DNA from: Lunularia cruciata
Lineage: Eukaryota; Streptophyta; Marchantiopsida; Lunulariales; Lunulariaceae
Direction: 5' to 3'
Assembly: GCA_948567375.1 (NCBI GenBank)
Contig: OX419762.1
Coordinates: 35,445,034-35,509,033, forward strand
Length of the DNA: 64,000 nucleotides
Shown here one piece after another: positions 15,860 through 57,286 of the stretch (positions within the stretch are counted from its first letter, which is position 1; each line of letters starts with the position of its first letter). The notes beneath the pieces are model-generated. The model saw nothing but the letters and a program-made list of their open reading frames with translations, searched no databases and was not told the origin of the DNA. The translations under genes were made by a program, and so were the position numbers.

Positions 15860-16504
15860 TCAATTAGTAGTTACAGTGGGAGGACAACACCCTAGGGTTG
15901 TGCTCTTAGACACAAGAGCTCAATAAGATGGGGCTACTAGACACTAAGTGGCAAAGATCTAAGTGGCAGATTTGTATTTAGTGGTAGTGTGAAGGAAGTA
16001 CTAGGGGAAAGCTCTGACCTGATTTCCCTCTCCTTTAATGAAGGTACAGATCAAGAGCTCAAACTTTAGGTCAGATTCTTGGTCACTAATGCCACTAGCT
16101 ATGACATGTTGATTGGGGAAGAGGTATTGTTCCAACCAGGCTTCACCATTGACAATTGGTATGAACATGTATACTATAGAGTGGATTGGGAGACTGATGG
16201 ACATCACTTGGACTTTATTCCCCTTGATATACATGGAGACCATAATCCTATGGCTCACCATTGTATGCTCAAAGAGGTTCACACCATCTCTTACATAAAG
16301 CAAGTTGATTATAAATGGATGGAAGAAGATGAGATGGAGATTTCCAATTCACAAGTGGCTGAAAGCTTGGAGGCTGCTTCCACTGATATTGCTCATGGAC
16401 CAGAGGTGCTCCAAAGACTCAAGGCATCTCATGAGCCCTTGGTCATAGCTCTGCAAATTTTGAAGCAATGGAAAGCAACAACAAACAAATTTAGCCATTC
16501 TTGA
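15860..16504 (+). pseudogene. Protease-like region of element A
   Basis: A degenerate active-site segment (VVLLDTRAQ) near 15895-15925 stands where gypsy proteases have D-[ST]-G-A. It is followed in an open stretch (16079-16504) by VTNATSYDMLIGEEVLFQPG, the usual strand before the protease C-terminus. The corresponding part of element D reads ESYDVLVGGAMLYPMG at 49850-49930. The frame breaks before 16079. Confidence 0.65.
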
Positions 16505-16671
16505 GCAAGGTAATCACGTGGATACCAACCAAGGATGAGCTCACATTACTTGAGCTCTTTGGTGGGATCTCTAAAGGTCTAGAGGCCTTGCTATAGTCAG
16601 GGATGGTAGTGAAGATATATGTTCATAGATCCAATTGCAAGGAGGGTAGCAAAATTACACAAAGGGGTAGA

Positions 16672-17093
16672 TGTAACAATATGGAGTTTAGCAACGAAGT
16701 TAGTAGGGCTAACAAAGTAGCAAATAAGACAAATTAGCCTAGAATATTCTAGAAGTATCTAGGAATCTTGGGAAGCTTCTCAGCTAGCTTAGCTTGCACC
16801 TCAAGTAAGTAGCTTCTAGAAAGAAGCTTCTAGAAGGTTCCAACTAGCTTAGCTTGCACACCAAGTAAGCGACTTATAGAAGGAAACTTCTTGAGAAGCT
16901 TCCTAATTAACTTGGCTTACACTCCAAGAAAGCAGCTCAAGGAAGCTTCTTGAGAAGCTTCTCAAGAGCCTTGTATGATCCTATAAATACAAGAGCAAAA
17001 GCTCATGCTAGGCATTCGGAGTTTTCTCTCATTCAAGTGTCCCAATGTGGGCTTCCATTCTCCTATTTCTCTCCTTGGTCTTGGACTTTTACA
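16672..17093 (+). repeat. 5' LTR of element B
   Basis: It begins TGTAACAATATGGAG and ends CTTTTACA (TG...CA). Inside, blocks such as GAAGCTTCTTGAGAAGCTTC form local palindromes, and a TATA-like TATAAATA stands at 16982-16989, about 110 bp before the LTR end. Confidence 0.9.
16982..16989 (+). promoter_or_regulatory. TATA box of element B 5' LTR
   Basis: TATAAATA lies in the LTR as CCTATAAATACAAGAG. The same block (CTACAAATACAAGAG) in the 3' LTR has lost the TATA, which fits decay. Confidence 0.5.
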
Positions 17094-20340: not shown

Positions 20341-20343
20341 GAT

Positions 20344-22289: not shown

Positions 22290-23031
22290 TAGAGCTGATT
22301 GCTAAATTTCATAACAATTCCCAACTAGTGCATGGAATGCAAGCTTCACATTCTTTCCCGCTGATATTAAGCTCATAAAACAAGGGCATTCTTGGATCTT
22401 TTTGGATCCTTGAATTTATTTATTGTAGGTTGGGAATGTCAAGGATTCTCAAAAATTGGTTTGGGAGAAGGTTTAAGTGATCTGAAATCCTATCTCTTCA
22501 TCGACATGGTACAAGTGATCACGTAGGCACAAGCACTCTACCCTTCTCTTGGATATGTGATTGATAATACCCCTTCTCAATATGATTAGAGAGAGAACGT
22601 CCAAGAAAACTTCATGTTGGTGTAACACTACCTTGTGAAACCAATTTTACTTGATGTAGTGCAATGTGGATCCCATGTAAATCAATTGTGGAACTTATGG
22701 ACTAACCTTGCACCTCTTGTTATTCTAGAATTATCCTTGAGAAACATCATTAGAGACCCTAATTTACAAGTTTCTAAAGTATTGGATGTTGATAGCTCTT
22801 GCTAACTAGTTACAACGCAAGAGAAAGCTCCATGGTTTTTGGCAAATATCATTGGGCAACCTAAAGGTGCTTGGCCTACCTTTGTGTCATTTCCAAGTGC
22901 ACATGCTTTCCAAGGATATGGAAAAGGTTTGGTGTATTGTCATGCAACAAGTATACAGGATGAACCAAGTTTTGAAGAGAGAGAAAGGGTTATGGGGTTC
23001 CAAACTAGCACTACTAGTCACACAAAGGTGA

Positions 23032-23601
23032 TGTAATGTTCTTAGGACAAGAGAACCCTCAAGAGAAACACAAGGCTTCAGCCCTCAATACTTTGATGCC
23101 CCCAAAAGAGCACCTTGTCTTTATTATATAGCAAGGAGGATCCCCTCAAAGGGAGCTCCACCTTTGAATCAGATACATGGATTGCTGACCTTTTAGCGAG
23201 CTCCACCCTAGATTAATTGCATGGATGGGTGACCTGTTGATCCTTGTCCTATTTAGTTGGTCAAACAAGTTTGACTGGAAGGAATCTTCATGTAAGAAGC
23301 TCAAAATCGCATGTGTGAGGTACCATTGGAACGTTCTCAATGAGGAAAACATGGAGGAGAAGGAAATACATTTCTCCTCTATATGAGAGAGAAAATTTCC
23401 ATTTTGAGGTCTAAATCATCTTTTTAGGCCTCCAAAATTGACTCTAAAGTTTTCAGGGTGTTCTTGATATCTGCCATATTAGTGGAAGTACTCTTTTGGT
23501 GATAACCCTATCTGATCTACTTAGATCATACATAACATCCTTCCAGATATTACCAAGCCAATTTCCACCTCTAGATAATATGTCTAGTTAATGGTATTAT
23601 A
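23032..23601 (-). mobile_element. Solo LTR of the element E family
   Basis: About 570 bp. It is the reverse complement of the LTR at 54242-55210: the + strand starts TGTAATGTTCTTAGG and ends GGTATTATA (TG...CA with the last CA decayed). The 5-bp duplication GGTGA stands on both sides (23027-23031, 23602-23606). Removing the insert restores the reading of the methyltransferase domain across the junction (SHTKV then TRLECNALLG). Confidence 0.88.
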
Positions 23602-24289: not shown

Positions 24290-26620
24290 CTCAATGAAGA
24301 CCTAAGCAAGTGTTAGGTGATGCAATTCTCCATTGGTCCAATTGATGAGACACCAATCTATTAGAGGAGGTATTTTTTGAGCAAGAATGAGTGGGAGCAT
24401 GTGGACAAAAGGTGCAAAGAGCTCCAAGAAGCTGGTCTTATTCAGCCATCTAGTTCTGATTTTGCAACAACTATAGTCATGCCGGAAAAGAATACTCCAT
24501 TGGACTATGGACTAAAAAGAAGATGTGTGGAGATTATAGACCTTTGAATATAGTTACACCTCAAGATAAGTATCCCATGCCCATCCAAGAGGAGTTATTT
24601 GATACCATTGAAGACTTTGACATCTTTACCATTTTAGATCTATGACAAGGCTTCAACCAAATTTTACTTTGTGCAAAAGACTGCAAGAAAACAACATCCT
24701 TGGAAGCAATAAACTATGGGAGTGATTGGTGATGCCCTTTGGCTTGAAGAATGCTCCAATATTCTTTCAACAAATCATGAAGGTACTTGAAGGTGAAGAT
24801 TTCTTGAAGTGCTATATAGATGATGTTCAAGTCCATAGCAAGCATTGCTATGATGATTTTAGAGCAACACTTGACTCATCTAGAAGAGCTATTGAAGAGG
24901 TTGATGGCTATGGACCTGAAAATACATCCCAAGAAATTGTGAGTTTGTTGTTAAGTCAGTAGTTTACCTTGGGCATCACATTCTTCTTGATGGTGTTATG
25001 GTTCATTTGGTCAAAGTGGTTTCTATCTTAGAGATGCACAACCCCAAAATGTGAGCACACTAAGAAGCTTCATTGGGTTGTGTAACTACTACCGGATTTA
25101 TGTCAAGGATTTTAGTACGATTGCACATCCTCTTTATCCATTACCAAAGAAAGATGCCACTTGGACATGGGGCCAATATGCTCATCTTGCTTTCCAAGCA
25201 CTCAGGGAGAAGCTCTTGGAATACCCAATACTTAGAATACTTCATTTCAGCAAGGTCTTCATACTACATAAAAATTCGAGTGCTCTTGGTATTGGTGCAA
25301 TTCTGACTCAATGAGGAAAGCAAGGAGTTTGTCATTGCTTTTGTATCTCAAACTAACAACAAGGCAGAAAGAAATTACTCTTCCTATGAGGGGGAGTGTC
25401 TTGCTGTTATGTGGGCTATTGTAAATTTTAGACCTTACCTCTATGGCACCAAGTTCACCTTGTACACTAATCACCAACCATTGAAGTGGCTGATGACCAA
25501 CGACAAGCTTACCAGCAACCTAGCTCATTGTGCACTAACACTTCAAGAGTATGAGTTTGAGGTAATCCATAGACCTAGTAGCACCTATAAAAATTCTGAT
25601 ACTATGTCTACAAGACCTCTTCCTACCTCTGAAGATTTTTGGATCCGAGACAAGATTTTGACCAGGTGTTTGAGGTAGCCATTTTACATTCATCTAGCTA
25701 CATCGCATTATTGCATTATCACCTAGCTCAACAGACACTGGAGACATATGGGAGGATTTTGATACTCTAAAATTTCTTCAGTATGGGCAGTACCCTTCTA
25801 GTTTTGTGTCAAGCCATTGGGATTGAGTACAATAGCAGCTAAAGTACTACTCATGAAGATGTAATCACCTAGTTAGATGCTTGCCGCAAGGTTGTTCTTC
25901 CATCCAATGAGAGAGCTGGTCTCATTGCAAAGGTACACTCTAAGCTTGTGCACTTTGGTATCAAGTATAAATATAGTCTCATGACTCCTCATTATCATTG
26001 GAGAGGGATGTATGCTTAAGTGTGAGAGCTGATTGCTATATGTGAAGAATGTGAGAACTTCCTTTTCTCATAGGCAGCCCACACTTCACCCACTTCCAAT
26101 TCAAGGTTTATTCTATCATTGGTCATGTGACCTAGCTAGAGAGTTACCTCAGACATCTAGAGGTAATGTTTACATTGTGATCATGATAGAATATTTCTCC
26201 AAGTGGATAAAATTAGTTGCATTGCCCAATAAGCACTCACATAGTACTAGCCAAGGTTTTCTCAAGCAAGTTCTGAGTAGATTTGGAGCTTGTGCTGAGT
26301 GTTTCACTGACCAAGGATCAGAATTTAGAGGAGAATTTCAAGAGCTACTTGACCATGCACTTATTGACTATCAAAGGACTTCACGAGATCATCCCCAAGC
26401 TGATGGCTTTGCAGAGAAAATGGTTCAAACATAGTAGGGATCGCAGAAGATATGTCCCACCAACAACAAGGAGGATTGGGGTTTGGTGCTGTACTACATT
26501 GCCATGGGATATAGAATTTCCAAGCATGTATCATTATTGCATTTTACTCCTTATTTTCTATTTTTGGAAGGCATCTGGTTCCATCTTCTTCTATTTCATC
26601 TTAAATGGATTAGGTAGTGG
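24290..26620 (+). pseudogene. RT, RNase H and integrase of element A (broken)
   Basis: RT: MPFGLKNAPIFFQQIM and FLKCYIDDVQVHS (YIDD, about 24800-24835). RT-RNase H connection: LRSFIGLCNYYRIYVKDFS (25057 on). RNase H: YLYGTKFTLYTNHQPLKWLM and FEVIHRPSS. Integrase: FYHWSCDLARELP (first Asp), CFTDQGSEF (second Asp), DHPQADGFAEKMV (Glu). The residues are closest to element D (LKWLMESDKLSRKLARWALI; YHWSLDFAGPLP). The integrase end near 26450-26600 lacks any PHD or chromodomain because the sequence runs into LTR G. Confidence 0.8.
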
Positions 26621-39850: not shown

Positions 39851-41210
39851 TCTTGCTTATATTAATGTTGCCCTTGCATAAGATGTTCTCCATGTGGATG
39901 ACCTTCTGTTACTAGGAGATCTGCATGTGGCATTTGGTATATTCTCCTCTAGTATTGCTTGTCAACCGACTTACCTCATTTGTACAGTTCCCCCCTCCTT
40001 GTCCTTCCTATCATGTCCGAGAGCCTTTGATAGGAGGATTATGGGAGTCTTTGGTGATATTCTTGGACTAGGGACCTTTGAGTGTGTGATAGGGGATATG
40101 CCACATAGACAGACGGCTTTGCCGATCTCGTGTGGAGGGGTTTGCTTGCTTTCTATGGAGGAGACAACACCTATAGCATTTTTGGGTAGTTGGGCTCTCT
40201 TGGCACCCCTACTTTCCTCTTGTTTTGTGGTTGTTGATAGGACGGTTTTGGAGACTTATGTGACAAAGGTGGAGGAGGGATCATTTTCTCTCGAGATGTT
40301 ATTGCGGCAGATGAGAGATACTCTATCCCCATGGGCACAAGAGGACTTTCCATCTTTTGCTTCACTATTGTTAGATTGAACTAGAGGTTTACAATCTTCC
40401 TTGATGGAGTGACATTGTGAGCATACGCTACATTCTCTCTTAGGTGACTTGTCCATTCCTCAAGCTACTAGAGCACATCTTCACTCTTGCTCCAGCAAGG
40501 GTGCAGGCTCTTGGATCCTAGCTTGACCATGCATTAGGGCATTTTGACTCGCACTAGCTACTTTCTCTACAATGATGAGGTTTTGCCTAGGTTTGGTCCA
40601 CCCATCTGCATCTTGATTACTCACTTGTGAGTGTGGTTCTACACTAGATGCACTAGTGGTCCACATGACATGATGTCCTTTTAGAGGATAGAGGATAGCT
40701 ACCCATGATGCTATTAGGGACATAGTGTTTGATATGGCACAAGAGAGTGGACACTTGGCTTGGAGGGAGCATTCGCATGCTTTGTAGATGACACACTTAT
40801 ACTTGGTCTGAGATGATCAAGTGATAATAGCAGATATCATGGTTACGGACCCTGCATGTGATACAATTTTGGAAGGAGTGATTACCCATATCCCTGGATG
40901 GGCAGAAAATGCAGCACTAGGTCGCAAGGTCTCCAAGTATAGAGGCATGTAGTGAGGTCACCTCTTTGTTCCTCTAGCCTTGGAGTTATATGGAGCGATG
41001 GACACAACATTCAACATAGTTGTCAAGGAGTGTGTGAGAGCTTATCATGTTAGGCGCCAAGGGGTACCACTCTCACTCTCATGCTTTGTAGCATATTTTA
41101 GATAATGTGTGTCCATTTCTCTATAGAATGCAGTGGTTGGTGCAATCTATATGAGAGCAATCACACTAGGTGATGCTTCTTTGGATGCTCTATTTGTTTG
41201 TAGACTGTAC
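39850..41210 (+). mobile_element. LINE-type retrotransposon, 3' part only (broken)
   Basis: Frames on the + strand resemble the region behind the RT of plant LINE-like elements: LPISCGGVCLLSMEETTPIA followed by FLGSWALLAPLLSS (about 40118-40225). Further on come RFCLGLVHPSA, a Cys/His cluster LTCECGSTLDALVVHMT with CPFRG (about 40570-40690), TTHDAI-like and AQESGHLAWREH (40732 on), and VPLALELYGAMDT with FNIVVKECVRAYHVRRQG (40971-41065). The Cys/His cluster followed by a nuclease-like tail is a LINE C-terminal feature. No RT catalytic core is left. The 486-bp frame 39894-40379 is the longest remnant. The element ends where a family-C LTR begins (41211). Confidence 0.6.
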
Positions 41211-41460
41211 TGTGAGCCGGCTTGTCTCTCACTCAGGATGAACCTCTGATGGCTATTATGGTAGTGCACCATGGACAAAAAAGGCAAAGAACCCCAACTC
41301 CATCATACGCCTCCAAGGCTAACACTCCAATACTCAAGACATTGCTCACTAAAGAACTCAATGAGAGAGAGATAGTTGCAAATAAAGGATGATGAGTACT
41401 TCCTCACCCCTTGTTTATATACTTGTGAAATAGTTACGCACCAAAGTTACTAATTATTGG
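41211..41460 (-). repeat. Truncated LTR of family C
   Basis: It begins TGTGAGCCGGCTTGTCTCTC and matches 56608-56860 with about ten changes, more diverged than the other copies. It stops near TAATTATTGG, where a family-D LTR fragment starts. Confidence 0.85.
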
Positions 41461-41567
41461 AGTTGTCGTGCGTATATACATTGCTACACAATATACATCG
41501 CTACAACATCATACACTATAGAAGCACAACTCACACATAAGTCATACATAGACTCTAAAGTGCCACA
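41461..41567 (-). repeat. LTR fragment of family D
   Basis: From CGTGCGTATATACATTG to AAAGTGCCACA it matches 44104-44211 (ATGCGTATATACATCG ... AAAGTGACACA). The fragment abuts the truncated family-C LTR. Confidence 0.75.
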
Positions 41568-41588
41568 ATAATCAGATTGTTTACCATT

Positions 41589-41617
41589 CTCAACTCAACT
41601 CAACTCAACTCAACTCA
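41589..41617 (+). repeat. Pentanucleotide microsatellite (CTCAA)n
   Basis: CAACTCAACTCAACTCAACT pattern, about six units of 5 bp, in non-coding DNA. Confidence 0.9.
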
Positions 41618-41989
41618 GTACTTGATTTGCCACTCTATAAACTGCCAACAACAGGGCATTGATTACAGTCAAGCCACACCCACTCCAACATAGAGAATCC
41701 AGGTGACGCTCACCGGTGTCATTGGGAAAATAATCTACACGTAGTATTGGTGCCATTTGGTGTGATTTTTCATGTTAGTGAACTCAAGGTTTATGTTATG
41801 GTGAAACCGGTAGTTGTTTTGTGTTCCTGTAAGCTCAAGGATTTTCTCTTGTGTTAAGGAAGGGAGGAAATTGAGTGGTGGATTTTCTTTAATGTAACAT
41901 AAGCTCGGGGTATTTTTCTTGTCACTTAACCGTTGGAGTATTACTATGTTATTGGGGGTCTCAAGAATTTTTGGGGAAGAGCAGTAGGG

Positions 41990-42960
41990 CTGAGTAAGAA
42001 TTTTTCGAGAAGAGGAGAATTTTGGAGAGAAGAATTGACAGTGAGAAGTTTTGGGAGTTGAGAAAAATGTCTTTCAGGAGTTCACAATGAGAAGTTTTGG
42101 GAGATGAGAGAGTTGGCAGTGAGGGTTTTTGGGAAGTGGCAGAAGGGTTTGAGAAGACATGGAATTTGAAAACAGAAAAGGTTTTTTAGGAGAAATGCTA
42201 TTCAGGAGTGGAATCTTCGGACAGTGAGAAGTTTCTGGAGATAAGAGGGCTGGTAGTGAGGGTTTTTGGGAAGTGGCAGAAGGGTTTGAGAAGACAGTGA
42301 ATTTGAAAAGAGAAAAGGTTTTCAGGAGAAATGTTATCCATGAGTGGAATTTTTGGACAGTTGGAAGTTTTGGGAGATGAGAGGGTTGGTAGGAAGCTCT
42401 TCAAGAATTGACATGGGGTTTCAAGAAGGAGAAATGCCTCTTCTAGGAGTTGACAGTGAGAAGTTTTGGGAGTTGAGAAAAATGTCTTCCAGGAGTTCAC
42501 AGTGAGAAGTTTTGGGAGATGAGAGGGCTGGCAGTGAGGGTTTTTGGGAAGTGGTAGAAGGGTTTGAGAAGACATGGAATTTGAAAACAGAAAAGGTTTT
42601 CAGGAGAAATGCTATCCAAGAGTGAAATTTTTGGACAGTGAGAAGTTTTGTGAGATGAGAGGGCTGGCAGTGAGGGTTTTTGGGAATTGGAAAAAGGGTT
42701 TGAGAAGACAGTGAATTTGAAAAGAGAAAAGGTTTTCAGGAGAAATGCTATCTAGGAGTGGAATTTTCGGACAGGTGGAAGTTTTGGGAGATGAGAGGGC
42801 TGGCAGGAAGCTCTTCAAGAATTGAAATGGGGTTTTGAGAAGGAGAAATGCCTCTTCCAGGAGTTGACAGTGAGAAGTTTTGGGAGTTGAGAAAAATCTC
42901 TTCCAGGAGTTGAGTTTACAGTGAGTGTTTCAAGAGAATGACATAACAAAGAGTTTCGGG
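41990..42960. repeat. Tandem repeat array with ~417-bp higher-order period
   Basis: Sub-units of about 130 bp contain GTGAGAAGTTTTGGGAGATG, GTGAGGGTTTTTGGGAAGTG, GAAAAGGTTTTCAGGAGAAA and GGAATTTTCGGACAG. The marker GGGAGTTGAGAAAAAT occurs near 42056, 42470 and 42887, that is every 416-417 bp. The array has about two and a half higher-order units. Long frames on the minus strand (42198-42575 and 42612-42818) exist because the period is close to a multiple of three; they encode Leu/Pro/Ser repeats and are not thought to be a gene. Confidence 0.85.
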
Positions 42961-43890
42961 GAATGCCAAAGAAGGGAGTGAAAGAGAAGGAAGCGACTTG
43001 TTTTCAAGAAAGGTGTGAGCTATGTTTCAGGAGAATGACATAACAAAGATTCCGGGTGAATGATAGAGAAGGAAGTGATTAGTTTCGGGACAAGAATAAA
43101 GAAGAAATGGAACAAGAACCTGTCGACCAGAGAACAGACTTGGAGAAGATCTCAGACGGAGTCATGACAAAATGGAGGGCTAAGAATTGTAAGGATTAGG
43201 ATGTAGAACTTGCTCAGTTCTCCTCCTTTGTGTACATGCTTTGCCGTTGAAGATTTTAGTCGGTCATTTTATTGTTTGAAGCTGCTTGGGTTTCCCTTGA
43301 AAAATTTATAACTCCAAGGCTTGGGATTACGATAAATATATACTTCCTTGATGAATGTGAATCTTTAGTCCATGAATAGTATAAATGAGAGGACTCTAGT
43401 CTCGGAGCTCTCAGTCTTAGTCGAGCCGCATTTCCAAGACCTGTCACTGACCTGATCATGATTATCTGAACCTGGCCATAGGACTGTGATTCGTTAGAGG
43501 AATTACATCACAACCCACTGAACGCAACTTAATATGGACAGAACTTTAACATTGGCAATGAAGCTTGAAGAATAAGATTGCGCCAATGAGTCCAATCCAA
43601 GAAGCCATTTACCATGAGCCTACATTCAGAGAGATCATTAGCAAGCTGCTCTAGCAAGAAGGACTGCTAGCCGGGCAAGTAGAGAGAGCGCATCTGATTA
43701 CAAAAAGGCTTTGAAAGTTGACAAGCCAAGCAGTCCAAGCGCAAGCAGCCAGGTGCCTGGCGCACTCTTGAGACCAACCAATCCCCATTACACCAACCTC
43801 TGTCCACCATAGCCAGGAACTCGAAGGCTCAACATCAGAGAAGTGAGCTCTCTGGAGCTGCACTTCAAAAGTATACCCCCTGGACTTGAG
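42961..43890. other. Non-coding stretch beyond the tandem array
   Basis: It carries on with a few diverged array-like words (TCAGGAGAATGACATAACAAAGA twice, near 42935 and 43030) and then single-copy sequence. No gene recognised. It may be part of the family-D LTR or of the site into which D inserted. Confidence 0.35.
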
Positions 43891-43899
43891 CTAGGTCTG

Positions 43900-44211
43900 A
43901 AACCCTAACAGTCCCGCTGATGGCACACTTGATGGTACGAATGGTGCAAAGTGATGGTGGGCCCCACCATGAAGTCAGTACCCCAAACACAAAATCTGAC
44001 CGTCAGAAAGTAGTCTTTAAGATACTGCTAAAATAACTCTAACTACTATCACTGGAACTCCAGTGTCCAAGCAATCTAGATGCGACACTACAAATGGCAT
44101 GATAGTTATCATGCGTATATACATCGTCACACAACATACATCACTATCAACATCATACACTATAGAAGCACAACTCACACATAAGTCATACATAGACTCT
44201 AAAGTGACACA
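43900..44211 (-). repeat. 3' LTR (start) of element D
   Basis: On the minus strand the LTR begins TGTGTCACTTTAGAGTC at 44211, directly after the purine tract (44212-44225). The first 108 bp recur at 41461-41567. The other end is not defined; 43900 is a guess. Confidence 0.5.
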
Positions 44212-44225
44212 ATTGCCCCCCTAGT
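44212..44225 (-). other. Polypurine tract of element D
   Basis: Minus strand CTAGGGGGGCAAT immediately before the LTR start TGTGTCAC; this is the plus-strand primer position expected in an LTR retrotransposon. Confidence 0.7.
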
Positions 44226-44379: not shown

Positions 44380-44605
44380 GTCAAGTACATCTAGGACATA
44401 ACCACTATCCCTGAGGAACCACCGTGAGGGGAGGAGTCATACATAGCATATGCCATCCTCTCAAACAGCTATCACACACTAATATAGTAGCAGCTCCACC
44501 AGAAGAGTCACATAACATACACCTCAAGCCTACATGTACAAGTGCAAAGCTTACGTCCATAGTACCATCAATGTTTGGGAGGTGGCATGGCGCACAATTG
44601 TGCAC
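44380..44605 (-). pseudogene. PHD finger behind the integrase of element D
   Basis: The frame reads CMLCDSSGGAATILVCDSC, then LRGWHMLCMTPPLTVVPQG, a stop, and WLCPRC. This is the complete C4HC3 pattern of a PHD finger: CxxC, CxxC, HxxC, the PPL and VPxG words and W-x-CPxC. PHD fingers read histone H3 tails. Here it stands where chromoviruses have a chromodomain, so a targeting role is inferred. The single stop between VPQG and WLCPRC breaks this copy. Confidence 0.8.
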
Positions 44606-44819: not shown

Positions 44820-45700
44820 TAAGCAATCTCCACATTCTCAAAGGCCATCAGCATCATCCTCCGAGAGATCTCTACCCGTTGAGAACATGCGCTCATCCAT
44901 ACATCGGGATCATCTAAGTCCAAAACTACTGTAGCATCTTGATAAATGGCTACATGTAAATCTGGATCTTGTCCATAGAGTAGAGATGCTAAGGAGGCTT
45001 GCCGGCTGAACCGATAGCCCATGGTGAACCAAGGTAATTGGAGATCCCAATCTCCCAAGTGCTCTCTTTGCAAACCATACTTTGCAATCCTTTCTTCACT
45101 TTCTGAACCACTCTCTCTACTAAGCTATCTGCCTCAGGGGTGATCTTGAGAGGTAGTACGGTGATCAATCAAAGCCTTGTCACATAAGACCTAAAACTTC
45201 CCCAACAACTTTGTACCCTGATCAGTCAAAACCTCAACTGGTGCACCAAAATGACTAAGAACTCAATCCAAGAACAAGTAAGTTGTCCCTTCACTAGACT
45301 TGTCAGGAAGTGCCACCAACTCAATCCACTTGGAGAAGTGCTCTACTATCACCAAAACATACCAATGATGTCTCACAGTCAGCGGTAAAGGTCCGGCAAA
45401 GTCCAAACTCCAATGGTAACCCAATCCCATGATAGGTAATGGGTGTAACTGTGGCAAAGGAGCATTGAATGATGCTCTAATTCGGTCACAAACCACACAT
45501 CTGGCAGCAAACTGTTGTTCCATGGCCTGCCTACCACACCACCAATAATGACTCAGGAGTAAGCTATATGTATGCTTTACTCCAAAATGTCCTAGCTCCT
45601 CATGAGCATGATGGACCAACTGTGGTCTTTGAGATGGAAGTGGCACTACTCGCACTCTACCATCCTCCCATACATGCAAAAGGTGTATGCCCTCTAATCT
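44820..45700 (-). pseudogene. Integrase of element D
   Basis: HHCC zinc region: HHAHEELGHFGVKHTYSLLL and CVVCDRI (45640-45480). Core: YHWSLDFAGPLPL (first Asp), VLTDQGTKL (second Asp, after a stop near 45260) and a decayed DHP...VERVVQ (Glu). The open part 45263-45679 is 138 codons. It resembles the integrase of element A and ends in the stretch leading to the PHD finger. Confidence 0.8.
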
Positions 45701-45985: not shown

Positions 45986-46480
45986 CTATTGGCTGGGACA
46001 TGGGTTTCTACTCAACCCAACTACATCACGGTTCACCACTCCAGGTCTGTGAAAAATTGTGAAATCGTACTCCTGTAAAATCAAAGCCCATCGTGCAAGC
46101 TTCCTTGAAAGCTTGTCGGACTCCATCAACCACTTTAGTGGCTGATGATCAGTGATGAGAGTGAAAGGGTACCAAATAGGTAACATCAAAAATGTACTAC
46201 TGCCCAAACTGCTGCCAAGCACTCTCCCTCATATGAACTATACTTCACCTCCGCTCAATTGTTGGAGTGACTAGCATAGGCCACCACAAACTCCTTCCCC
46301 TCATCATCATGTTGGGTGAGCATCGCTCCAAGCCCCAACATACTCCAATCAGTATGAACCTGAAATGGTCATCCTCTGATCCGTCTCCTCAAAATAGGAG
46401 CAGATGTCAACCTCTCCTTGAGCTCTACAAAAACTCTCTCCTACTCATCTCCCCAACACCACTCTTGTGTAAGCTTGGTC
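45986..46480 (-). pseudogene. RNase H of element D
   Basis: LTQEWCWGDEQERVFVELKE, then FQVHTD, FVVAYASHS, YSSYEGECLAAVWAV, LITDHQPLKWLMESDKLS and FTIFHRPGVVNRD follow the order of a gypsy RNase H. Its start is separated from the RT by the solo LTR at 46481-47171; removing the LTR and one TSD copy makes the reading continuous (ALTKLT then KLTQEW). Confidence 0.8.
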
Positions 46481-47171
46481 TGTAACACCCATTTGTGCAT
46501 GTGTGTGGTATTGTGATATTTAGCTTGGTATTACAAGTACTTAAGAGATATTATTTTTATAGAGATAAAGGATGGTTCTATATTAGTCATGGTTAGCTAA
46601 AGTTAGTCATAGCTAAGATAGAGGGGACCTTACTTTAGAGGAAGTAGAATTGATGAGCACCACAATTTTGGATTTTAGTGTGTTGACTTGGTATTATTCC
46701 TAGATGTTTGGTTTTGAGGAAAGAGTTGAGAACTCTTGGGCCCGTAAGCCTTTTTTTTTGGATTCTTCTTTAGTCCAAGGATAGCCCATGTGAAGGAATC
46801 CTTGACTTAGTGGTTGGGTCAAGATAAGACCACATGCTTAGGGGAATATGCCCATGTGAATGGATATTCCTTTCTACTTTGTGACTTTACTTGACTTTTA
46901 GTCTAGTAACTTGAGTTACTACGGTAATTAGTAACTTTGGTATGTAACTATTTCACAAGTATATAAACAAGGGGTGAGGAGGTATTCATCATCTTTTCAT
47001 TTGCAACTATCTCTCTCTCATTGAGTTCTCTAGTGAGCAATGTCTTGAGTCTTGGAGTGTTAGCCTTGGAGGAGTATGATGGAGTTGGAGTTCCTTGCCT
47101 TCTTAGTCCATGGTGCGCTACCATAATAGCCATTAGAGGTTCCATCTGAGTGAGAGCCAGGCCGGCTCACA
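46481..47171 (+). mobile_element. Solo LTR of family C inside element D
   Basis: 691 bp, TGTAACACCCATTTGTGC...CCGGCTCACA. The target-site duplication is 4 bp, GGTC (46477-46480 and 47172-47175). A TATA box (TATATAAA) is at 46960-46967. It separates the RT from the RNase H of D. Confidence 0.92.
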
Positions 47172-47179
47172 GGTCAGCT

Positions 47180-48160
47180 TTGTCAAGGCCTTGGCAATGG
47201 CACTAAATCCTCTAACATAGTGGCAATAGAAGTTTGCCAACCCAAGGAATGCTCACACTCTACTCACATTCGTAGGCTAAGGAATATGTGCAATGGCCTC
47301 CACCTTGGTCTGTTGAACACCAAGTCCTCCGGGGTAGATAGTGTAACCCAAATACTCAACCTGCTCGTGGAAGATTCTACACTTCCCAAGATGTAATTTG
47401 AGTCCATGAGATCTCAACCTCTCAAACACCTCCAACAATTGTCTCTCATGCTCCTCCACACTAGTGCTATAGACCAAAATGTCATCAATATAGCACCAAA
47501 CAAAATCCAATCTAGCTAGGATCCTATCCATGACCCTCTTGAACTCAGTAGGGGTGTTCTTTAACCCAAAATGTAAGAACCTCCACTAATATAACACATC
47601 CTTGCCGTGAGGATCAATAGCCCAAAATGTTATCTTGGACTTATCCTCCTCTCTGATCAGCAACTGATGATATCCCGCTCAAAGATCCAAAGTACTGAAG
47701 ACCTTTGCATGCCCAATCACATCAAAAATCTCCTCTGGTGTAGGCATGGCATACCGATCAGCCCTGGTCTATCGGTTGATAGGACGGTAATCTCCACACA
47801 TCCACCTATTTGTGTAGTTGCCATGCATATCCTTCTTGGCTGACATCACTATGATTTATGCATACTCTCCATGTGAAATCTCCACCAAACCAGCCTCACA
47901 AAGGTCACTACTCCAATTTTGAATCAATGTCCTCTCCATCTCACTATATCAATAAGGACTTCGTAAAATTGGTGTATCGCTAGTCAGCTCAATCCGTATA
48001 CTAGGTCCCTTTAGAGCACCCAAATCCTTCATACTAAAGGCAAAACAACTCGTGTGGCTCCTCAAGAACCTCCAAACCCTCTGTCCTTCCTCTCCAATAA
48101 GCTTGGGTCCAAGATCTGGCTCCCATGTATCCTCTATAACTATAGGAGTGGAAGACATAC
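47180..48160 (-). pseudogene. Reverse transcriptase of element D
   Basis: Upstream part with FLRSHTSCFAFSMKDLGALK; RT blocks MCGDYRPINR, KVFSTLDL then AGYHQLLI, FLHFGLKNTPTEFKRVM and VWCYIDDILVYS (YIDD at about 47470-47495), then VEYLGYTIYPGG and FLGLANFY. Stops occur near 47590, 47670 and 47770. The 257 bp at 47172-47428 have been copied into element F. Confidence 0.8.
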
Positions 48161-48489
48161 TGACTGGCTGCTACATTGGGCCCTTGGGAGCAATAGTGTC
48201 ATGCCCCCGACTACTAGAGGTCCCAACCTTTGTGTGAAAAACTCCCTCCACTCTGGTTGCAAGCTCCACATGTCCACTAGCTACATCTCAAGTGGATCAA
48301 GGGTGTACTCCAAGTAGACCACTCTCCCTAGTAGCTACTAGTTGTGTCTCAAGAATACCATGTCCATTCGGTCCATCGCCCCCGGCATGTGCTTGAATCG
48401 TCTCAATAGGCATAGGGCTCACAAGTGTCCGAGTGGTGATGCCTAGCAAATGCATCCTACACTGCTCTACCAAGCCAAGCCTCACAATC

Positions 48490-49440
48490 CAATTCACAAG
48501 GCTCACAAGGCAAACAGTTCAAGTCCATAGCCTGACCTAACACTTGACGCCTGGATGCCTCCGACATTGTTGGAATAGGGGTAATATTGGTGCAAAAAAC
48601 CTATCGCCTACTCTCTCTCATCAGCGTTGGGCTCCACCAACTACTATAACTATGAGTCCCAAACAAGTCCAGGTCCTCCCTCTCAAAAAGCATGAGAGCT
48701 TGGGAAACTCATGAGTGTGGGAAATGCGACTCTAGGCTGTCCAACTAGCTTCACCATTGCCATAGGTGACCTATCAGCCACTACCACTATTTGAGACTGA
48801 CGCCTAACATCCAAGATATCATCAACAAGGATGTAGTCAAGTTGTTGAATTCTATCATAAGCACACTGTAGAACCTCTTTGGATAAGAGGTTTGTCCACC
48901 AAAGACAAAGATGATAAGCCTGTGATCCCCCTCTGGCTGCATCTAAAAATATAGCATGTCTCATCCAAGAATGGACCTGATGTGTACTTGCCACCACTCT
49001 AGTGCAAGAATCACCCATCAAAGGAACATTCTCCAAAAGGTAAGCTGGAGAAATGGACTGATGAACCTGGAGATGTTGTAGTATCCATAACATCTCCCAA
49101 AACACACCAAAACGAGGATCTTGAAGACCCAAACCTCTACCAGCACATGTGTATCCCTGACATGGCCATCTTAAAATCACCTCCAGATCATGGGCCCCTA
49201 GTAAGGAAATGTATGATGGTAGGGATTTCTCATAACCTCTGACTGCTGACTTCGGTAATAACTCCGGATACCAATAGGCCAAGTGTGCCACATGATGTAG
49301 AAAGACTTGCCTAGCAATCTCATCTCCCTCTACATACAAGTTCCTCTGTACTCATATACCTGCCTATAATATCACCGCTAATCCGATGTTAATCCCACCA
49401 AACAACTCCAATAGACATATCCTCTCTACTAGATATTGCC
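48490..49440 (-). pseudogene. C5-cytosine DNA methyltransferase domain of element D
   Basis: Canonical motif order. I (SAM binding): LLELFGGINIGLAVIL, about 49415-49370. II: YVEGDEIARQV. IV with the catalytic Cys: RWPCQGYTCAGRGLGLQDPR; the PCQG codons are at 49154-49165. VI: YLLENVPLMGDS. VIII: SQAYHLCLWWTNLLSKEVL, like the RYFWGN block of DNMT3-type enzymes. IX/X region: GQPRVAFPTLMSFPSSHAF, then after breaks SEASRRQVLGQAMDLN near 48545. The 218 residues 49339-48683 are open; two stops lie between motifs I and II and more after the SHAF word. Order and catalytic residues indicate a bona fide enzyme domain that decayed recently. The reaction is SAM-dependent 5-methylation of cytosine. Position between protease and RT means it was made as part of Pol. 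Confidence 0.88.
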
Positions 49441-49476: not shown

Positions 49477-50339
49477 TCAACTCTGGAGGCTCATCCTCAC
49501 ACTCATCCCCTGATGGTACGAAGGCTCCACTCCAAGCCTACTGTACCAACTGATTTGCATGATGTTGCAATGCCTCCTTTGAATTCCATAATGGAACATC
49601 CAAGGTGGATAGAACAATCCTGCTCGTAATCCAAATCCAAGTGATCTCCTCTGGTACTGGAGTATTCTTTGCATAGGCTTTCCACTCCAACAAATCACGA
49701 GGCCAAGTACCGGTACCACTAAAAGCTAAAATTGATGTTGTCATGGTCCCAGACTATAGTGAGCCAAGACGACCACTACTAAAGCGTATTGGTAGGCAAC
49801 ATACCTGTCCCTCACCAGACTGTCAACTTGGTCTATAGGAGGTTGTCTCCTCCCAATAGTCAATGCTGAAACCCATGGGGTATAACATTGCTCCCCCAAC
49901 TAGCACATCATATGACTCAACTATTGTCGCAATAGCCTGAGCTCTCACCACTAAGCTATCAGTTGGATGACCAGACTGAACCTGGACAACAAGCTCCCCA
50001 CGTGTGATGTATTGTGTCAAACCACCACCTAGAGATGTCTAGATTTGAAATGGACACCTCTTCACATCGGTCTTCCATAACTCCAGACCGACAATTGTAG
50101 CCTTCTCCAACATAAGGGATTACGCACCAAAGTCTAACAAGTCTCTGTGGTGTATAGACCTTCCCTAAAGGTCCCACCAAACGGGAAATCCTCCTCTGGT
50201 TATCCAATAGGACAACACCAGGTGTGAACCGTGCTCTTTCAAAGGCCGGTCTAGCTGGCAACTCCTCTAGTCTAGCTGCCGCTGCCTGCCATAAACCACT
50301 GGTTGTTGAATGGATCCCATGCTCTACAAACAAGCTCAC
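49477..50339 (-). pseudogene. Protease remnant and linker of element D
   Basis: FVEHGIHSTTSGLWQAAAAR (50325-50265) matches VEENGIRSVTSGIWQATAAR of element F (53832-53891). It is followed by GVVLLDNQRR at the expected active-site place (D-[ST]-G-A lost) and ESYDVLVGGAMLYPMGFSID before the linker. The linker at 49744-49540 includes WPRDLLEWKAYAKN and PVPEEITWIW, of unknown function. Confidence 0.6.
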
Positions 50340-50599
50340 TTCTTTGATGGATTATTGGACCTCCTCCATTCTCTACTTCCTATTTGTGCACCATGTTTGT
50401 GTGAGGTGCCTTGACTTTTAAGCGTTGGTGCTCTGGTGTGCTCTTGGTAGTGAGGATGGAGTGATGACCAGTCAGACTACCTTTCTTTCTCTCCGGTGAG
50501 GCAATAAGTGATGATCTGCAGACCGTGAGAGTGCATGTTGTGATGGCAGGTTACAAGTTGCCCTTTCTCCTAGTGTAGTTATCTCAATTAGAATTACAT

Positions 50600-53500
50600 T
50601 AGTGGGTGGTGCTTAGTTGGTGGGGTGCTTGCAGTTATGACTTGCGGTTGCCGTTTGTGGTTTTGGTTTGCTATTGTAGTTTGCGGTTGTAGTTACTTTG
50701 TCACTACAGAGTTCTTTGGGGATTCTGGAGGAAATAGCTCTGTAGTACACTGTGGGTTTACTCGGAGTGGTACTCGGTATCAGCCTATATCTCAGGTCCC
50801 AGTGAGGGAGGAGATTGACTCTGAGTTGGAGTTTGACACAAGAACTGATTTAGTTGAGAGTGCACTTGGTGTGTTCACACCATTGTTGTGGGACATGGAC
50901 AAGATTTATGGGGCCTCTAAAGGCCCTAGGTGTTACTCTAGTACAGTGGGTACCATTGAGTTGGATGATTTCATCTAGGTGTTTGATAGTTGGTGTGATC
51001 TGTAGCAAATGCGGAACCCAAATTTATTTACACCTTTCATGGCGTGGAAGGGGTTGTCTTAACATCTAGAGGGCCTGCCGATGGATGACTACCATGAGTT
51101 TAGGAGAGCTCATTTGGAGGAGATCAAGTTATGGAGACAGTATTGGTCTCCAAACTATGTCTGTATCACTTCAAGTTTGGTGGCCAGTAGTAGATTGGTT
51201 GTACCTATGAGTTCTAGCTTGAGTAGTGTTAGTGGAGCTAGTGGAGGTGCACTAGTTAGAGATAGTGCTACTACAAGTGGAGGTACCGTTGCAAGAGGTG
51301 GTGTGGTACTAGGGTTTAACCCTATGGTGGAGTTCTTCTTGTGTTTGAGGCAGAACTACCAGGGAGTGCGGACTGTAACACCCATTTGTGCATGTGTGTG
51401 GTATTGTGATATTTAGCTTGGTATTACAAGTACTTAAGAGATATTATTTTTATAGAGATAAAGGATGGTTCTATATTAGTCATGGTTAGCCAAAGTTAGT
51501 CATAGCTAAGATAGAGAGGACCTTACTTTAGAGGAAGTAGAATTGATGAGCACCACAATTTTGGATTTTAGTGTGTTGACTTGGTATTATTCCTAGATGT
51601 TTGGTTTTGAGGAAAGAGTTGAGAACTCTTGGGCCCGCAAGCCTTTTTTTTTGGATTCTTCTTTAGTCCAAGGATAGCCCATGTGAAGGAATCCTTGACT
51701 TAGTGGTTGGGTCAAGATAAGACCACATGCTTAGGGGAATATGCCCATGTGAATGGATATTCCTTTCTACTTTGTGACTTTACTTGACTTTTAGTCTAGT
51801 AACTTGAGTTACTACGGTAATTAGTAACTTTGGTATGTAACTATTTCACAAGTATATAAACAAGGGGTGAGGAGGTACTCATCATCTTTTCATTTGCAAC
51901 TATCTCTCTCTCATTGAGTTCTCTAGTGAGCAATGTCTTGAGTCTTGGAGTGTTAGCCTTGGAGGAGTATGATGGAGTTGGAGTTCCTTGCCTTCTTAGT
52001 CCATGATGCGCTACCATAATAGCCATCAGAGGTTCCATCTGAGTGAGAGCCAGGCCGGCTCACAGATCAGCTTTGTCAGGGCCTTGGCAATGGCACTAAA
52101 TCCTCTAACATAGTGGCAATAGAAGTTTGCCAACCCAAGGAATGCTCGCACTCTACTCACATTCGTAGGCTAAGGAATATGTGCAATGGCCTCCACCTTG
52201 GTCTGTTGAACACCAAGTCCTCCGGGGTAGATAGTGTAACCCAAATACTCAACCTGCTTGTGGAAGATTCTACACTTCCCAAGATGTAATTTGAGTCCAT
52301 GAGATCTCAACCTCTCAAACACTCATCATCTTTTCATTTGCAACTATCTCTCTCTCATTGAGTTCTCTAGTGAGTAATGTCTTGAGTCTTGGAGTGTTAG
52401 CCTTGGAGGAGTATGATGGAGTTGGGGTTCCTTGCCTTCTTAGTCCATGGTGCGCTACCATAATAGCCATCAGAGGTTCATCCTAAGTGAGAGACAGGCC
52501 GGCTGACAGGACTGACAAGCTGAGGAGCTTCTAGGAGTTCCAACGGAAGGCTGGAAAGAGCCTATGCAAGGCATATACTCGCATGAGGCGGCTGATCAGT
52601 TTCACTCAGGGAGTTACTGAGGCCCAAGCAGTCCAGTTTTGGTATGGGATACCAGATAGGGAGTTGTGATGTAGAGTTTGTGATGCTACATTGTTGTAGG
52701 CTACTTCACCCACTTTGGCAGTAGTCTTTGGTTTGGTTGAGCATATTGAGCTCAACATGGTGGAGGAGAGAGTGGTGACATTTGGATTTGGTAAGGAGAC
52801 CTCATCCAGAGTTGTGACTTCTTCTAGAGTGCAGTAGAGTACACCACGCCCAGTTGGTTTTTGAGGACAAGGTGGACAGCCTAGATCCTATAGAGCAAGT
52901 GGAGGGCTAGTGGAGTTAGACCCTTACCTTCATTTTTGGGTCAGCAACAACTAGTGAGTGGTGGTGTTGCTTGTTGGACTTGTGGTGGACCTCACCATCA
53001 AAGAGAGTGTACTTAGGGCAGTGGACCTGATACATCGGGTGCATCATAGTCAACACAGAGGCAATGTGAACATTGCCACAGATTTGGTCACACACGTGAC
53101 CGGTGTTTTGACCTACACCTGGAGTTACGGAGTGGTAGGGCTATTATGGCAGGTAGTAGAGGAGCTCCAGTTCATGGAGGACGAGGTGGTAGAAGCGGCG
53201 GTATAGGATCTACACCTAGTAGGGATGCAGTACCTGCCCTTACTTTTTGATACAGCAATGGCTACTCGGATTGAGCAATTGGAGCAGAGATTGGCTAGTA
53301 TGGTTATTGCTCAGAGGAGATCAGATTTGGGTGCTGAGGCTTCCACCTCATATGATGGTAATAGAAATGCTTTGGACTTCATGTGCGGAGCAGCACAGGT
53401 GGATGCATCTGCAGGAGTGACTAGGAGTGAACTACATGCTCCAGAGCCTAGAGGAGCATCAGTGGAGTTGGACCCACATAGAGGAGAGGTAGGGAGACAG

Positions 53501-53942
53501 GTCAGACTTCACTAGTCTTTCACGCTATTTGAGGCATTGCAGACAACATCCATGGATCCTAGACGTCCTAGTGCAGGTGTGGTAGGTGGTGATGGAGTAC
53601 ATGATGAACTACCTACTAGTCAACCACCTACTACTACATAGACTGAGTCTAGCATGATGTTGGGGGCGGCTCAGCTGATTATGCAGCATCCTTTGTTTTC
53701 AGCCATGTTTACATTGGGAGTTGACCAACCCAACCCTAGTGTTCCGATTGGCTGCCATACTGTGTGAGAGTATGGATGATGCGGTTCCTACTACTAGAGC
53801 AGAGGTGGTTGATAGTAGAGTTGACTTGGTTGAGGAGAATGGGATCCGTTCAGTGACCAGTGGTATATGGCAGGCAACGGCGGCTAGAGAGATGCAAGAC
53901 GAGTCTTCAAATCAGGTTGTTGTGACAAGGCATCAAGCATGA
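50600..53942 (+). mobile_element. Element F: gag region of a methyltransferase-lineage gypsy element
   Basis: Opposite in orientation to element D. The + strand encodes an N-terminal region (DDYHEFRRAHLEEIKLWRQY, 51081 on), a capsid part (LISFTQGVTEAQAVQFWYGI, 52588-52650; VEHIELNMVEERVV) and two zinc knuckles, CWTCGGPHHQREC (52972-53010) and CEHCHRFGHTRDRC (53065-53106). An Arg/Gly-rich stretch and a helical segment (MATRIEQLEQRLASMVIAQR, 53260 on) follow. It ends in the same SGIWQATAAR word with which the visible part of D starts, so F ends where D begins in the element. Stops are present. A family-C LTR insert (51374-52508) splits it. Confidence 0.75.
51374..52508 (+). mobile_element. Composite family-C LTR insert in element F
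   Basis: Three parts: a full LTR (51374-52064), 257 bp of element D RT sequence (52065-52321), then the last ~187 bp of an LTR (52322-52508, ending CCGGCTGACA). The outer target-site duplication is GGAC (51370-51373 and 52509-52512). The first 948 bp match 46481-47428 with ten differences. Confidence 0.9.
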
Positions 53943-55813: not shown

Positions 55814-56607
55814 ATGGATCCGCAATTGCAATAGCTAGTGCAAGGAATGCAAGGGATGTTGAATGATTTTGAGAGATTAAGATGACCATGGAGACATTAC
55901 AAAGTCAAGTGTAGATTCTCAGGAATGATCAAGCCATGCAAGAAGAAGAGCCATCTCAAAACCCAATATCTATGATTGAAGTACTAGAGAGGCACCCGTG
56001 CCTACAAACCCTATCAATGATGAAGCCACATTGCTACTCCGGATGAAGAAGACCTGCAACATTGAGCCTTACAAGGAGCAGCATATGATGGGAGTAGTGG
56101 AAAATTGGATCTCGAGAATGAATCGATATTTCCGATTGTTCTCAACAGAGATCACAAAGCATGTTGTAGGCGTGTTTGCATGTGGGTACTTGACCAATAA
56201 AGCCCTCACATGGTATGATGTTTGGGAATGATCCATGTTGGCAAAGAGAAGGGAGGTCACATGGACAACAATGCAAGAAGGATTGTTGAAGAATTTCCAA
56301 TTGGTGGATTTTGTGCAGATGGCTCGAACCCGACTATGGGGATTGAGATAGAAGAATAGCATACACAAGTATGTGGAGGCATTTGTAGATCTATAAGCTG
56401 CAATTACCAACATGAGTCCAGTAGAGGCTCTTGACAATTTCAAACGAGGGTTGAAAGAGCGGATTTGCCAAGAAGTCATTGTGCAAAATCCTCACACGGT
56501 ATTTGAGGCTATTGCTTGTACGCAAAGAATAGTAGGAGCATTTGGTGGAGGTGAAGGAGTAGTTCCACCTCAACATTATCGGGCAGAAATGCCACACATG
56601 GGTGGAC
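55814..56607 (+). pseudogene. gag of element E (broken, 3' truncated)
   Basis: Gag words: VENWISRMNRYFRLFSTEIT (56098 on), ALTWYDVWE and, in another frame, VEALDNFKRGLKERICQEVI (56418 on), typical of gypsy capsid. Stops and frame changes are present. The region ends at the insertion of element C. Confidence 0.7.
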
Positions 56608-57286
56608 TGTGAGCCGGCATGTCTCTCACTCAGGATGAACCTCTGATGGCTATTATGGTAGCGCACCATGGACTAAGAAGGCAAGGAACCCCAACTCCAT
56701 CATACTCCTCCAAGGCTAACACTCCAAGACTCAAGACATTGCTCACTAGAGAACTCAATGAGAGAGAGATAGTTGCAAATGAAAGGATGATGAGTACCTC
56801 CTCACTCCTTGTTTATATACTTGTGAAATAGTTACGTACCAAAGTTACTAATTACCGTAGTAACTCAAGTTACTAGACTAAAAGTCAAGTAAAGTCAAAA
56901 AGTAGAAAGGAATATCCATTCACATGGGCATATTCCCCTTATCTTGACCCAACCACTAAAGCAAGGATTCCTTCACATGGGCTATCCTTGGACTAAAGAA
57001 GAATCCAAAACAAAAAGGCTTGCGGGCCCAAGAGTTCTCAACTCTTTCCCCAAAGCCAAACACCTAGGAATAATACCAAGTCAACACACTAAAATCCAAA
57101 ATAGTGGTGCTCATCTTTTCTACTTTCTCTAAAGTAAGGTCCCATCTATCTTAGCTATGACTAACTTTAGCTAACCATGACTAATATAGAACCATCCTTT
57201 ATCTCTATATAAATAATATCTCTTAAGTACTTGTAATACCAAGCTAAATATCACAATACCACACACATGCACAAATGGGTGTTACA
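56608..57286 (-). repeat. 3' LTR of element C
   Basis: Minus strand TGTAACACCCATTTGTGC...CCGGCTCACA, 679 bp, slightly shorter than the 691-bp solo copy at 46481-47171. A 65-codon frame on the opposite strand (about 56637-56831) is kept in all copies but is antisense to the element. Confidence 0.93.

What the first reader, a model, noticed from the sequence alone, without database searches (positions are those of the whole stretch)
48490..49440. Gypsy retrotransposon with a C5-cytosine DNA methyltransferase inside pol (element D)
Seen: motif I (LFGGINIG), the catalytic PCQG loop, LLENVP, the LWWTNL block and VLGQAMDLN in canonical order, placed between protease and RT on the same strand. Known: retrotransposons carrying DNMTs have been reported in charophyte algae and dinoflagellates, where self-methylation was proposed. 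Inferred: this window shows the same idea in a probable land plant, with a domain closer in order and motif VIII to DNMT3 than to the permuted plant DRM. A selfish element that writes its own methylation could hide from, or exploit, host silencing.
Basis: partly seen in the sequence, partly recalled or inferred. Interest (0 to 1): 0.92.

Follow-up and report, generated by a model that had tools for sequence, protein, structure and literature searches.

The report
Jumping gene carrying DNA methyltransferase
This plant genome, likely that of a liverwort or moss, has 2,756 matches to a short signature of a DNA-methylating enzyme built into one jumping-gene family; the family also encodes a finger predicted to read chromatin and likely marks its own new copies with methyl groups before inserting them.

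Summary
Confirmed and enlarged. Window 49429-48505 (minus) is a decayed DNMT3-type methyltransferase (MTase) domain between protease and RT of a Ty3/Gypsy pol. A second MTase-Gypsy lineage lies at 16-26 kb.

The window's own genome (566 Mb) holds a young expansion of the same family: a 33-base MTase signature matches 2,756 places (reversed control 0); 29 of the 30 best copies are 97.0-99.5% identical; MTase pN/pS 0.37, RT 0.23.

Young copies read A-gag-PR-MTase-TAG-RT-RH-IN-PHD-B-A-B. The TAG stands in 47 of 49 loci, mostly before CAG-CCA, a recalled plant read-through context, so the MTase is probably made with Gag. Such split repeats are reported for KnitGypsy-Dnmt3 of the alga Klebsormidium; yet 8 of 12 copies have 4-bp target-site duplications, as an integrase makes.

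Relatives occur in Marchantia, Calypogeia and Sphagnum; a clade with the MTase between RNase H and integrase is in Haematococcus and many unnamed contigs.

Known kind, new variant: likely bryophyte hosts, PHD reader, leaky-stop layout, moved domain, thousands of signatures. Self-methylation is inferred, not shown.

The parts
48505..49429 (-). DNMT3-type C5-methyltransferase domain of element D (decayed: stops, one frameshift)
   Evidence: profile E 1.8e-95; motifs placed; 222-aa open piece 49351-48683
49862..50158 (-). aspartic protease of element D
   Evidence: profile E 2e-25
48163..48173 (-). TAG CAG CCA GT: stop between MTase and RT, same place and context as in young copies
   Evidence: pattern search; 47 of 49 own-genome loci have TAG there
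47322..47825 (-). reverse transcriptase of element D (Ty3-like)
   Evidence: profile E 4.7e-56; PF00078 E 1.9e-20; Ty3 RT 4ol8 E 1.2e-14
46058..46455 (-). RNase H of element D, cut off from RT by a later insertion at 46477-47172
   Evidence: profile E 2.8e-34; self-match
45134..45643 (-). integrase of element D (zinc-binding part and core)
   Evidence: profile E 2.1e-63; PF17921 E 2.5e-11
44384..44524 (-). PHD finger after integrase of element D
   Evidence: profile E 1.9e-17; PF00628 E 9.7e-7, above cut-off
44112..44213 (-). repeat B, first copy
   Evidence: 94% to B of a young copy
43797..44102 (-). repeat A, first part (A is split here by an insertion)
   Evidence: 90% to A of a young copy
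41591..41716 (-). repeat A, rest
   Evidence: 90%
41464..41569 (-). repeat B, second copy
   Evidence: 95%
50354..51375 (+). gag of element D, first part, inverted relative to pol
   Evidence: 87% to a young copy
52509..53888 (+). gag of element D, rest, inverted; separated from the first part by inserted repeats
   Evidence: 91% to a young copy
15977..16150 (+). protease of a second MTase-Gypsy element (element B here)
   Evidence: profile E 8.4e-9
16531..16716 (+). N-terminal part of the MTase of element B
   Evidence: profiles E 4e-7 and 1.2e-6
22368..23060 (+). rest of the MTase of element B, split from its start by a nested LTR element without MTase (LTR matches 16664-17094 and 21868-22290, 91.9%)
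   Evidence: profile E 3.9e-59; LTRs
24499..26398 (+). RT, RNase H and integrase of element B
   Evidence: profiles

Best explanation
The window holds a decayed copy of a Ty3/Gypsy retrotransposon family that encodes, in order, gag, protease, a DNMT3-type cytosine methyltransferase, reverse transcriptase, RNase H, integrase and a PHD finger, and that likely methylates its own new DNA before inserting it. Shown: the gene order, the split repeats A-coding-B-A-B, the 4-bp target-site duplications, a conserved in-frame TAG after the methyltransferase, catalytic residues kept across the family, pN/pS well below 1 in the copies compared, and thousands of signature matches in this genome. Inferred: (1) the TAG is a leaky stop, so that the methyltransferase is made with Gag and protease at high level and RT-integrase-PHD only by read-through; (2) the methyltransferase is therefore carried in the particle and methylates the fresh double-stranded cDNA de novo; (3) the PHD finger reads the histone H3 tail, most likely with unmethylated lysine 4, and steers insertion to silent chromatin; (4) new copies thus arrive already marked, which would lower harm to the host and avoid a response to naked foreign DNA.
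Against: No methylation, expression, read-through or binding was measured here. The window copy is dead. MTase-free Gypsy elements also do well in the same window (an open frame of 1,197 aa at 62169-58576), so the MTase is not needed for success. In young copies C>T/G>A singletons per site are highest at CHG (29 of 140), then CG (10 of 70), then CHH (27 of 361); 6 of 8 MTase stops are CAG to TAG. So the host probably methylates them in contexts that a CG enzyme does not explain, and silencing by the host would account for the marks without self-methylation. pN/pS comes from the best-scoring copies and so leans low; the MTase is under looser constraint than RT. CG-binding residues were not compared. 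The P of PCQ is E in 89 of 176 domains.
Confidence: 0.6

Rival explanations
1. The methyltransferase acts mainly on other DNA (host genome or invading DNA viruses) and is kept because it helps the host or dampens the element itself.
For: Proposed in print: defence against DNA viruses (PMC6338049, passage); benefit to the host or slower transposition (PMC5890265 discussion). Thousands of signature matches could mean much enzyme.
Against: In each of the 185 proteins in which a further domain was found, that domain is gag, PR, RT, RNase H, integrase or PHD, which ties the MTase to the particle; MTase and RT are inherited together.
Confidence: 0.15
2. The domain no longer needs catalysis: it serves as a DNA- or RNA-binding part of the particle, or methylates RNA.
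For: MTase constraint is weaker than RT (0.371 against 0.234); PCQ varies to ECQ in 89 of 176 domains; a SymbioLINE DNMT did not methylate DNA in yeast (PMC5890265 discussion).
Confidence: 0.15
3. A host DNMT or DRM fragment was inserted once beside a retroelement by chance.
For: The window copy is a broken fragment with stops.
Against: 2,756 signature matches; PR, MTase and RT stand in one frame in 10 of the 11 loci printed; two separate MTase-Gypsy lineages in one window; relatives in liverworts, mosses and green algae. The one non-element match found is a permuted, DRM-like host gene (L056).
Confidence: 0.01

Closest known systems
KnitGypsy-Dnmt3 of the charophyte Klebsormidium nitens (de Mendoza et al. 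2018, PMC5890265; abstract, sections 9 and 11 and passages seen)
   Same: Unpermuted Dnmt3-type domain in the Pol of an LTR Gypsy element; repeats arranged as in DIRS elements; purifying selection on the MTase (Ka/Ks < 0.2 there, pN/pS 0.37 here).
   Different: Here the likely host is a bryophyte with 2,756 signature matches; a PHD finger follows integrase (the word PHD does not occur in that main text; its Fig. 4c was not seen); the MTase lies before a conserved in-frame TAG; another clade has it between RNase H and integrase. K. nitens sequences could not be compared.
SymbioDIRS-Dnmt3 and SymbioLINE-Dnmt of dinoflagellates (same paper)
   Same: DNMT encoded by the retrotransposon; two domain orders coexist in SymbioDIRS; CG methylation de novo shown for retrotransposon DNMTs.
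   Different: Other element classes, with tyrosine recombinase or LINE endonuclease; here Ty3-like RT, DDE-type integrase and 4-bp target-site duplications.
Chromoviruses (chromodomain-bearing Ty3/Gypsy; recalled)
   Same: Ty3/Gypsy pol with a histone-reading domain at the integrase C-terminus.
   Different: Predicted reader is a PHD finger, and the element also carries a DNA-methylating writer.
Host DNMT3 and DRM enzymes
   Same: C5-methyltransferase fold, catalytic residues.
   Different: No PWWP or ADD match in the Pfam scans of 16 relatives; motif order is unpermuted, unlike the DRM-like host gene seen in this genome.

Membership tests
DNMT3-type C5-methyltransferase domain | Motifs I, IV, VI, VIII, X in canonical, unpermuted order with catalytic Cys | tested here: met
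   Window motifs in order; Cys 174 of 176 relatives, 2 gaps
DNMT3-type C5-methyltransferase domain | Nearer DNMT3 than other classes by sequence and fold | tested here: met
   DNMT3A E 6e-12, 4onj (recalled as DRM) 1.2e-8, named DRM2 1.6e-4, HhaI about 4e-3; the 50 Foldseek rows shown and VIA ranks 1-34 are DNMT3. Done with relative P0001, not with the window fragment; no plant host DNMT3 was in the set
DNMT3-type C5-methyltransferase domain | De novo methylation of CG | not testable with these tools
   Needs an assay; shown in print for other retrotransposon DNMTs (abstract)
DRM | Rearranged motif order (VI-X before I-V) | tested here: not met
   Order is I to X; a host gene with the rearranged order was seen at L056
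Ty3/Gypsy retrotransposon | pol order PR-RT-RNase H-integrase and Ty3-like RT | tested here: met
   Ty3 RT best PDB match E 1.2e-14
Ty3/Gypsy retrotransposon | Direct terminal repeats and short target-site duplication made by integrase | tested here: met
   A repeats of 448-458 bp in direct order, ends TGTC/GACA, 4-bp duplication in 8 of 12 copies. Departure: the 5' repeat lacks B, which stands before and after the 3' A
KnitGypsy-Dnmt3 type | Dnmt3 domain in Gypsy Pol | tested here: met
KnitGypsy-Dnmt3 type | Repeats arranged as in DIRS: A-coding-B-A-B | tested here: met
   3' B-A-B seen in 10 of 12 copies and in the window; 5' A without B. Feature taken from the Fig. 4 legend and the SymbioDIRS legend
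KnitGypsy-Dnmt3 type | Sequence kinship with K. nitens copies | not tested
   No listed hit is named K. nitens (most rows carry no organism; one search lists 120 of 216)
DIRS element | Tyrosine recombinase and no target-site duplication | tested here: not met
   DDE-type integrase in window and young copies; no tyrosine recombinase among Pfam hits of relatives P0069, P0087, P0129; 4-bp duplications. That DIRS make none is recalled
PHD finger | C4HC3 zinc ligands | tested here: met
   PF00628 E 9.7e-7 in the window; pattern in 106 of 107

The most novel reading that the evidence does not exclude
An old green-lineage family of writer-reader retrotransposons, spread from chlorophytes to liverworts and mosses, packages a DNMT3 writer with Gag by way of a leaky stop, methylates its cDNA inside the particle, reads H3 with a PHD-tailed integrase to land in silent chromatin, and replicates through a DIRS-like repeat scheme that ends in integrase-type insertion; in this genome its thousands of methyltransferase copies would far outnumber the host's own genes and may shape the host methylome.
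Probability: 0.3. Interest if true: 0.9.

Novelty: new variant of a known kind. Interest (0 to 1): 0.77.

Why it matters
Plants silence transposons by cytosine methylation; here an element carries an enzyme of the kind that writes that mark, plus a predicted reader of chromatin, and its signature stands in thousands of places. [quoted passage not shown] proteins of Marchantia, Calypogeia and Sphagnum say otherwise for bryophytes. A genome with many young copies makes the open question of self-methylation directly testable by methylome and cDNA sequencing. The mix of DIRS-like repeats with integrase-type insertion is also a puzzle in retroelement replication.

Tried and rejected
Host gene fragment, DRM origin and single chance insertion were considered and rejected (see rivals). 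Scans of viral contigs and genome contigs found no relatives. No tRNA in the window. CpG depletion is no mark of MTase elements: CpG o/e is 0.25 in element D, but 0.12 in the MTase-free element at 58 kb and 0.42 in the whole window. A plain LTR pair for element D was sought by self-match and not found; the reason came later: split repeats and a missing 5' end. Whether the MTase entered Gypsy once is open: relatives form one group against three animal-type DNMT3 rows, one of them named (Neodiprion) (100/100), but plant host DNMT3 rows are missing. Placement B (between RNase H and integrase) is one clade by RT (98/91, 45 rows); by MTase it is 99/94, with P0094 of unclear layout inside, and only 91/82. 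Placement A is not one clade, and the root is unsure. The search of the own genome for a host DNMT3 scored 41 of 1,951 candidates; of the 20 loci looked at, 19 are the element and one is DRM-like.

Literature: ten searches, all used; in the titles and abstract starts listed, none reports MTase-Gypsy in bryophytes or chlorophytes or a PHD finger in such elements. PMC12344493 (passages) calls the known cases 'LTR Copia and DIRS'. PMC6673714 is not held.

Full report
OBSERVATION. The copy is decayed: 7 stops in the 278 codons from 49429 to 48596, plus a frameshift; 222 codons are open. Pfam alone is weak (PF00145 E 0.0013, under its cut-off), but a profile of relatives gives E 1.8e-95.

RELATIVES AND ARCHITECTURES. 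Searches gave 28, 76 (a few of them animal DNMT3) and 216 (120 listed) proteins. P0145 carries a bacterial MAG label, most likely contamination. Of the 220 proteins held, 55 have the MTase next to protease or RT (placement A, as in the window), 130 next to RNase H or integrase (placement B), 35 show the MTase alone, among them the animal enzymes. 79 of the 220 show RT-RH-MTase-IN-PHD in that order. Many rows are partial, and the B count reflects the third query, itself of type B. B is one clade by RT (98/91, 45 rows); by MTase 99/94, with P0094 of unclear layout inside, and 91/82. MTase and RT distances go together (Mantel r 0.554; 0 of 999; 96 proteins, only 5 of them A; within B 0.475, 0 of 999, 91 proteins). 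So the MTase travels with its RT, and the domain has changed place in pol at least once, unless one group captured a second MTase.

THE OWN GENOME. The window is C12:35445034-35509033 of a 566-Mb assembly. P0001 has 111 full-length or nearly full-length matches there (those scored of 13,360 first-look candidates). A 33-base motif-VI signature has 2,756 matches with up to 3 mismatches; the reversed control has 0. This counts signatures, not intact elements. Of the 30 best matches fetched, the 29 of equal length are 97.0-99.5% identical over 1,092 bases, and 8 of these 29 hold a stop there. pN/pS is 0.371 for MTase (29 copies), 0.275 PR (28), 0.234 RT (27), 0.152 for part of RNase H (25); copies with gaps or under 90% identity in a stretch were left out of it. 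These are best-scoring copies, so values lean low, for the MTase most of all.

ANATOMY OF YOUNG COPIES. Two copies were fetched in halves. Both read: A repeat (about 449 bp), gag with CCHC knuckle, PR, MTase, stop, RT, RNase H, integrase, PHD, B (107 bp), A, B, about 9.96 kb in the C2 copy. Each also has further stops in the RT part. Pieces of ten more copies show B-A-B in 8 more, so 10 of 12; one piece starts too late to show the first B (L043/44), and one copy ends after a single B (L035/36). Four-base target-site duplications stand in 8 of 12; one has none (L049/50), one carries a further A beyond the piece (L039/40), and for two the 5' A was not in the piece. A/A identity is 95.3-99.1% in the 9 copies where it could be read, in three over part of A only. 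The window element fits: B 44213-44112, A 44102-43797 and 41716-41591 (split by an insertion), B 41569-41464; its gag is inverted in place (50354-51375 and 52509-53888, plus strand) and no 5' A was found. It is mostly 87-92% identical to a young copy, so it is an old member of the same family.

THE STOP. 105 codons after the end of the MTase match the frame meets TAG in 28 of 30 loci (one at 104, one broken). RT follows in the same frame. Counting further loci, 47 of the 49 in which the place could be read have TAG (one place is counted twice), followed by CAGCCA (44), CAGCTA (2) or CAGCCT (1). The window copy has TAG CAG CCA too. TAG-CAR-YYA is the tobamovirus-type read-through context (recalled, not from a call). 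In 23 of 220 relatives gag, PR and MTase also form one protein that shows no RT; 19 of these end 75-144 residues after the MTase and 4 end 0-14 after it; some are partial gene models. I infer that the MTase is made at Gag level and the polymerase and integrase by read-through.

THE PHD FINGER. 107 PHD fingers (103 in B proteins, 3 in A proteins, 1 in the window) keep the C4HC3 pattern in 106. The nearest solved ones are KMT2C, KMT2D, DPF3, CHD4, KAT6A, KDM5, ATXR5, AIRE and UHRF1, families that mostly bind the H3 tail with lysine 4 unmethylated (recalled). The nested element and the 58-kb element in this window, which lack the MTase, gave no PHD match, but neither did element B, which has the MTase; so these few elements do not show that PHD and MTase go together.

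MARKS OF HOST METHYLATION. Of 99 singletons in the MTase stretch, 66 are C>T or G>A: CHG 29 of 140 sites, CG 10 of 70, CHH 27 of 361; 6 of 8 in-frame stops are CAG>TAG. The copies are thus probably methylated at CHG and CG, which speaks for silencing by the host after insertion and does not show self-methylation.

MECHANISM. Best reading: MTase packaged with Gag, methylation of the fresh cDNA, and PHD-guided insertion into silent chromatin. The layout, conservation and low pN/pS are shown; packaging, methylation, read-through and reading are inferred. Published work supports the enzyme step for other retrotransposon DNMTs: they methylated CG de novo (PMC5890265, abstract).

KNOWN OR NEW. Gypsy-Dnmt3 with DIRS-like repeats is known from K. 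nitens (PMC5890265 section 9), so this is a variant of a known kind. New against what I could read: bryophyte hosts, thousands of signature matches, the PHD reader, the TAG layout, placement B, integrase-type target-site duplications beside split repeats. [quoted passage not shown] Ten literature searches listed no report of these points, but subscription papers, figures and supplements were not seen. Host: unnamed; eight large contigs hold all but one of the 111 matches (C1, C2, C6, C7, C8, C10, C11, C12; seven have printed lengths of 60-77 Mb, C1 reaches beyond 83 Mb), which would suit a liverwort (recalled), and window plus own-genome copies group with liverwort and moss rows.

Noticed in passing
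15977-26398 (+): A second MTase-Gypsy element of another deep lineage (67% to P0073), its MTase split by a nested LTR element; catalytic motif reads WECQG; no PHD match found after its integrase.
   Followed up: partly
46477-47172, 51370-52065, 56607-57286, 41210-41456, 63728-64000: A repeat of about 690 bp (or parts of it) in these places, inserted among others in RT and gag of element D; a 953-bp piece (RT fragment plus repeat) stands both at 46477-47429 and 51370-52322, 98.8% identical, next to a further 189-bp piece.
   Followed up: partly
57335-62169 (-): A Gypsy element without MTase match and with long open frames of 1,197 and 435 aa, so probably a much younger insertion than element D.
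   Followed up: partly
29157-32309 (-): Open frames with weak, sub-cut-off matches to a STAND NTPase (PF20720) and DUF7779 (PF25000), perhaps an NLR-like host gene.
   Followed up: partly
42032-42911: Repeats spaced about 136 and 278 bp inside the insertion that splits repeat A.
   Followed up: no
L039/L040 and L035/L036: Variant ends: one copy has B-A-B-A, another ends after a single B yet keeps its 4-bp duplication; recombination between repeats or a replication variant.
   Followed up: no
P0072: A B-type polyprotein with a Tudor-like domain (PF21743) after the PHD finger: a second predicted reader.
   Followed up: no
P0151: A B-type polyprotein whose EukProt name looks like a transcript record, a hint that such elements are transcribed.
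   Followed up: no
176 MTase domains: The Pro before the catalytic Cys is Glu in 89 of 176 domains, 86 of them placement B, an unusual motif IV for a C5-methyltransferase.
   Followed up: partly
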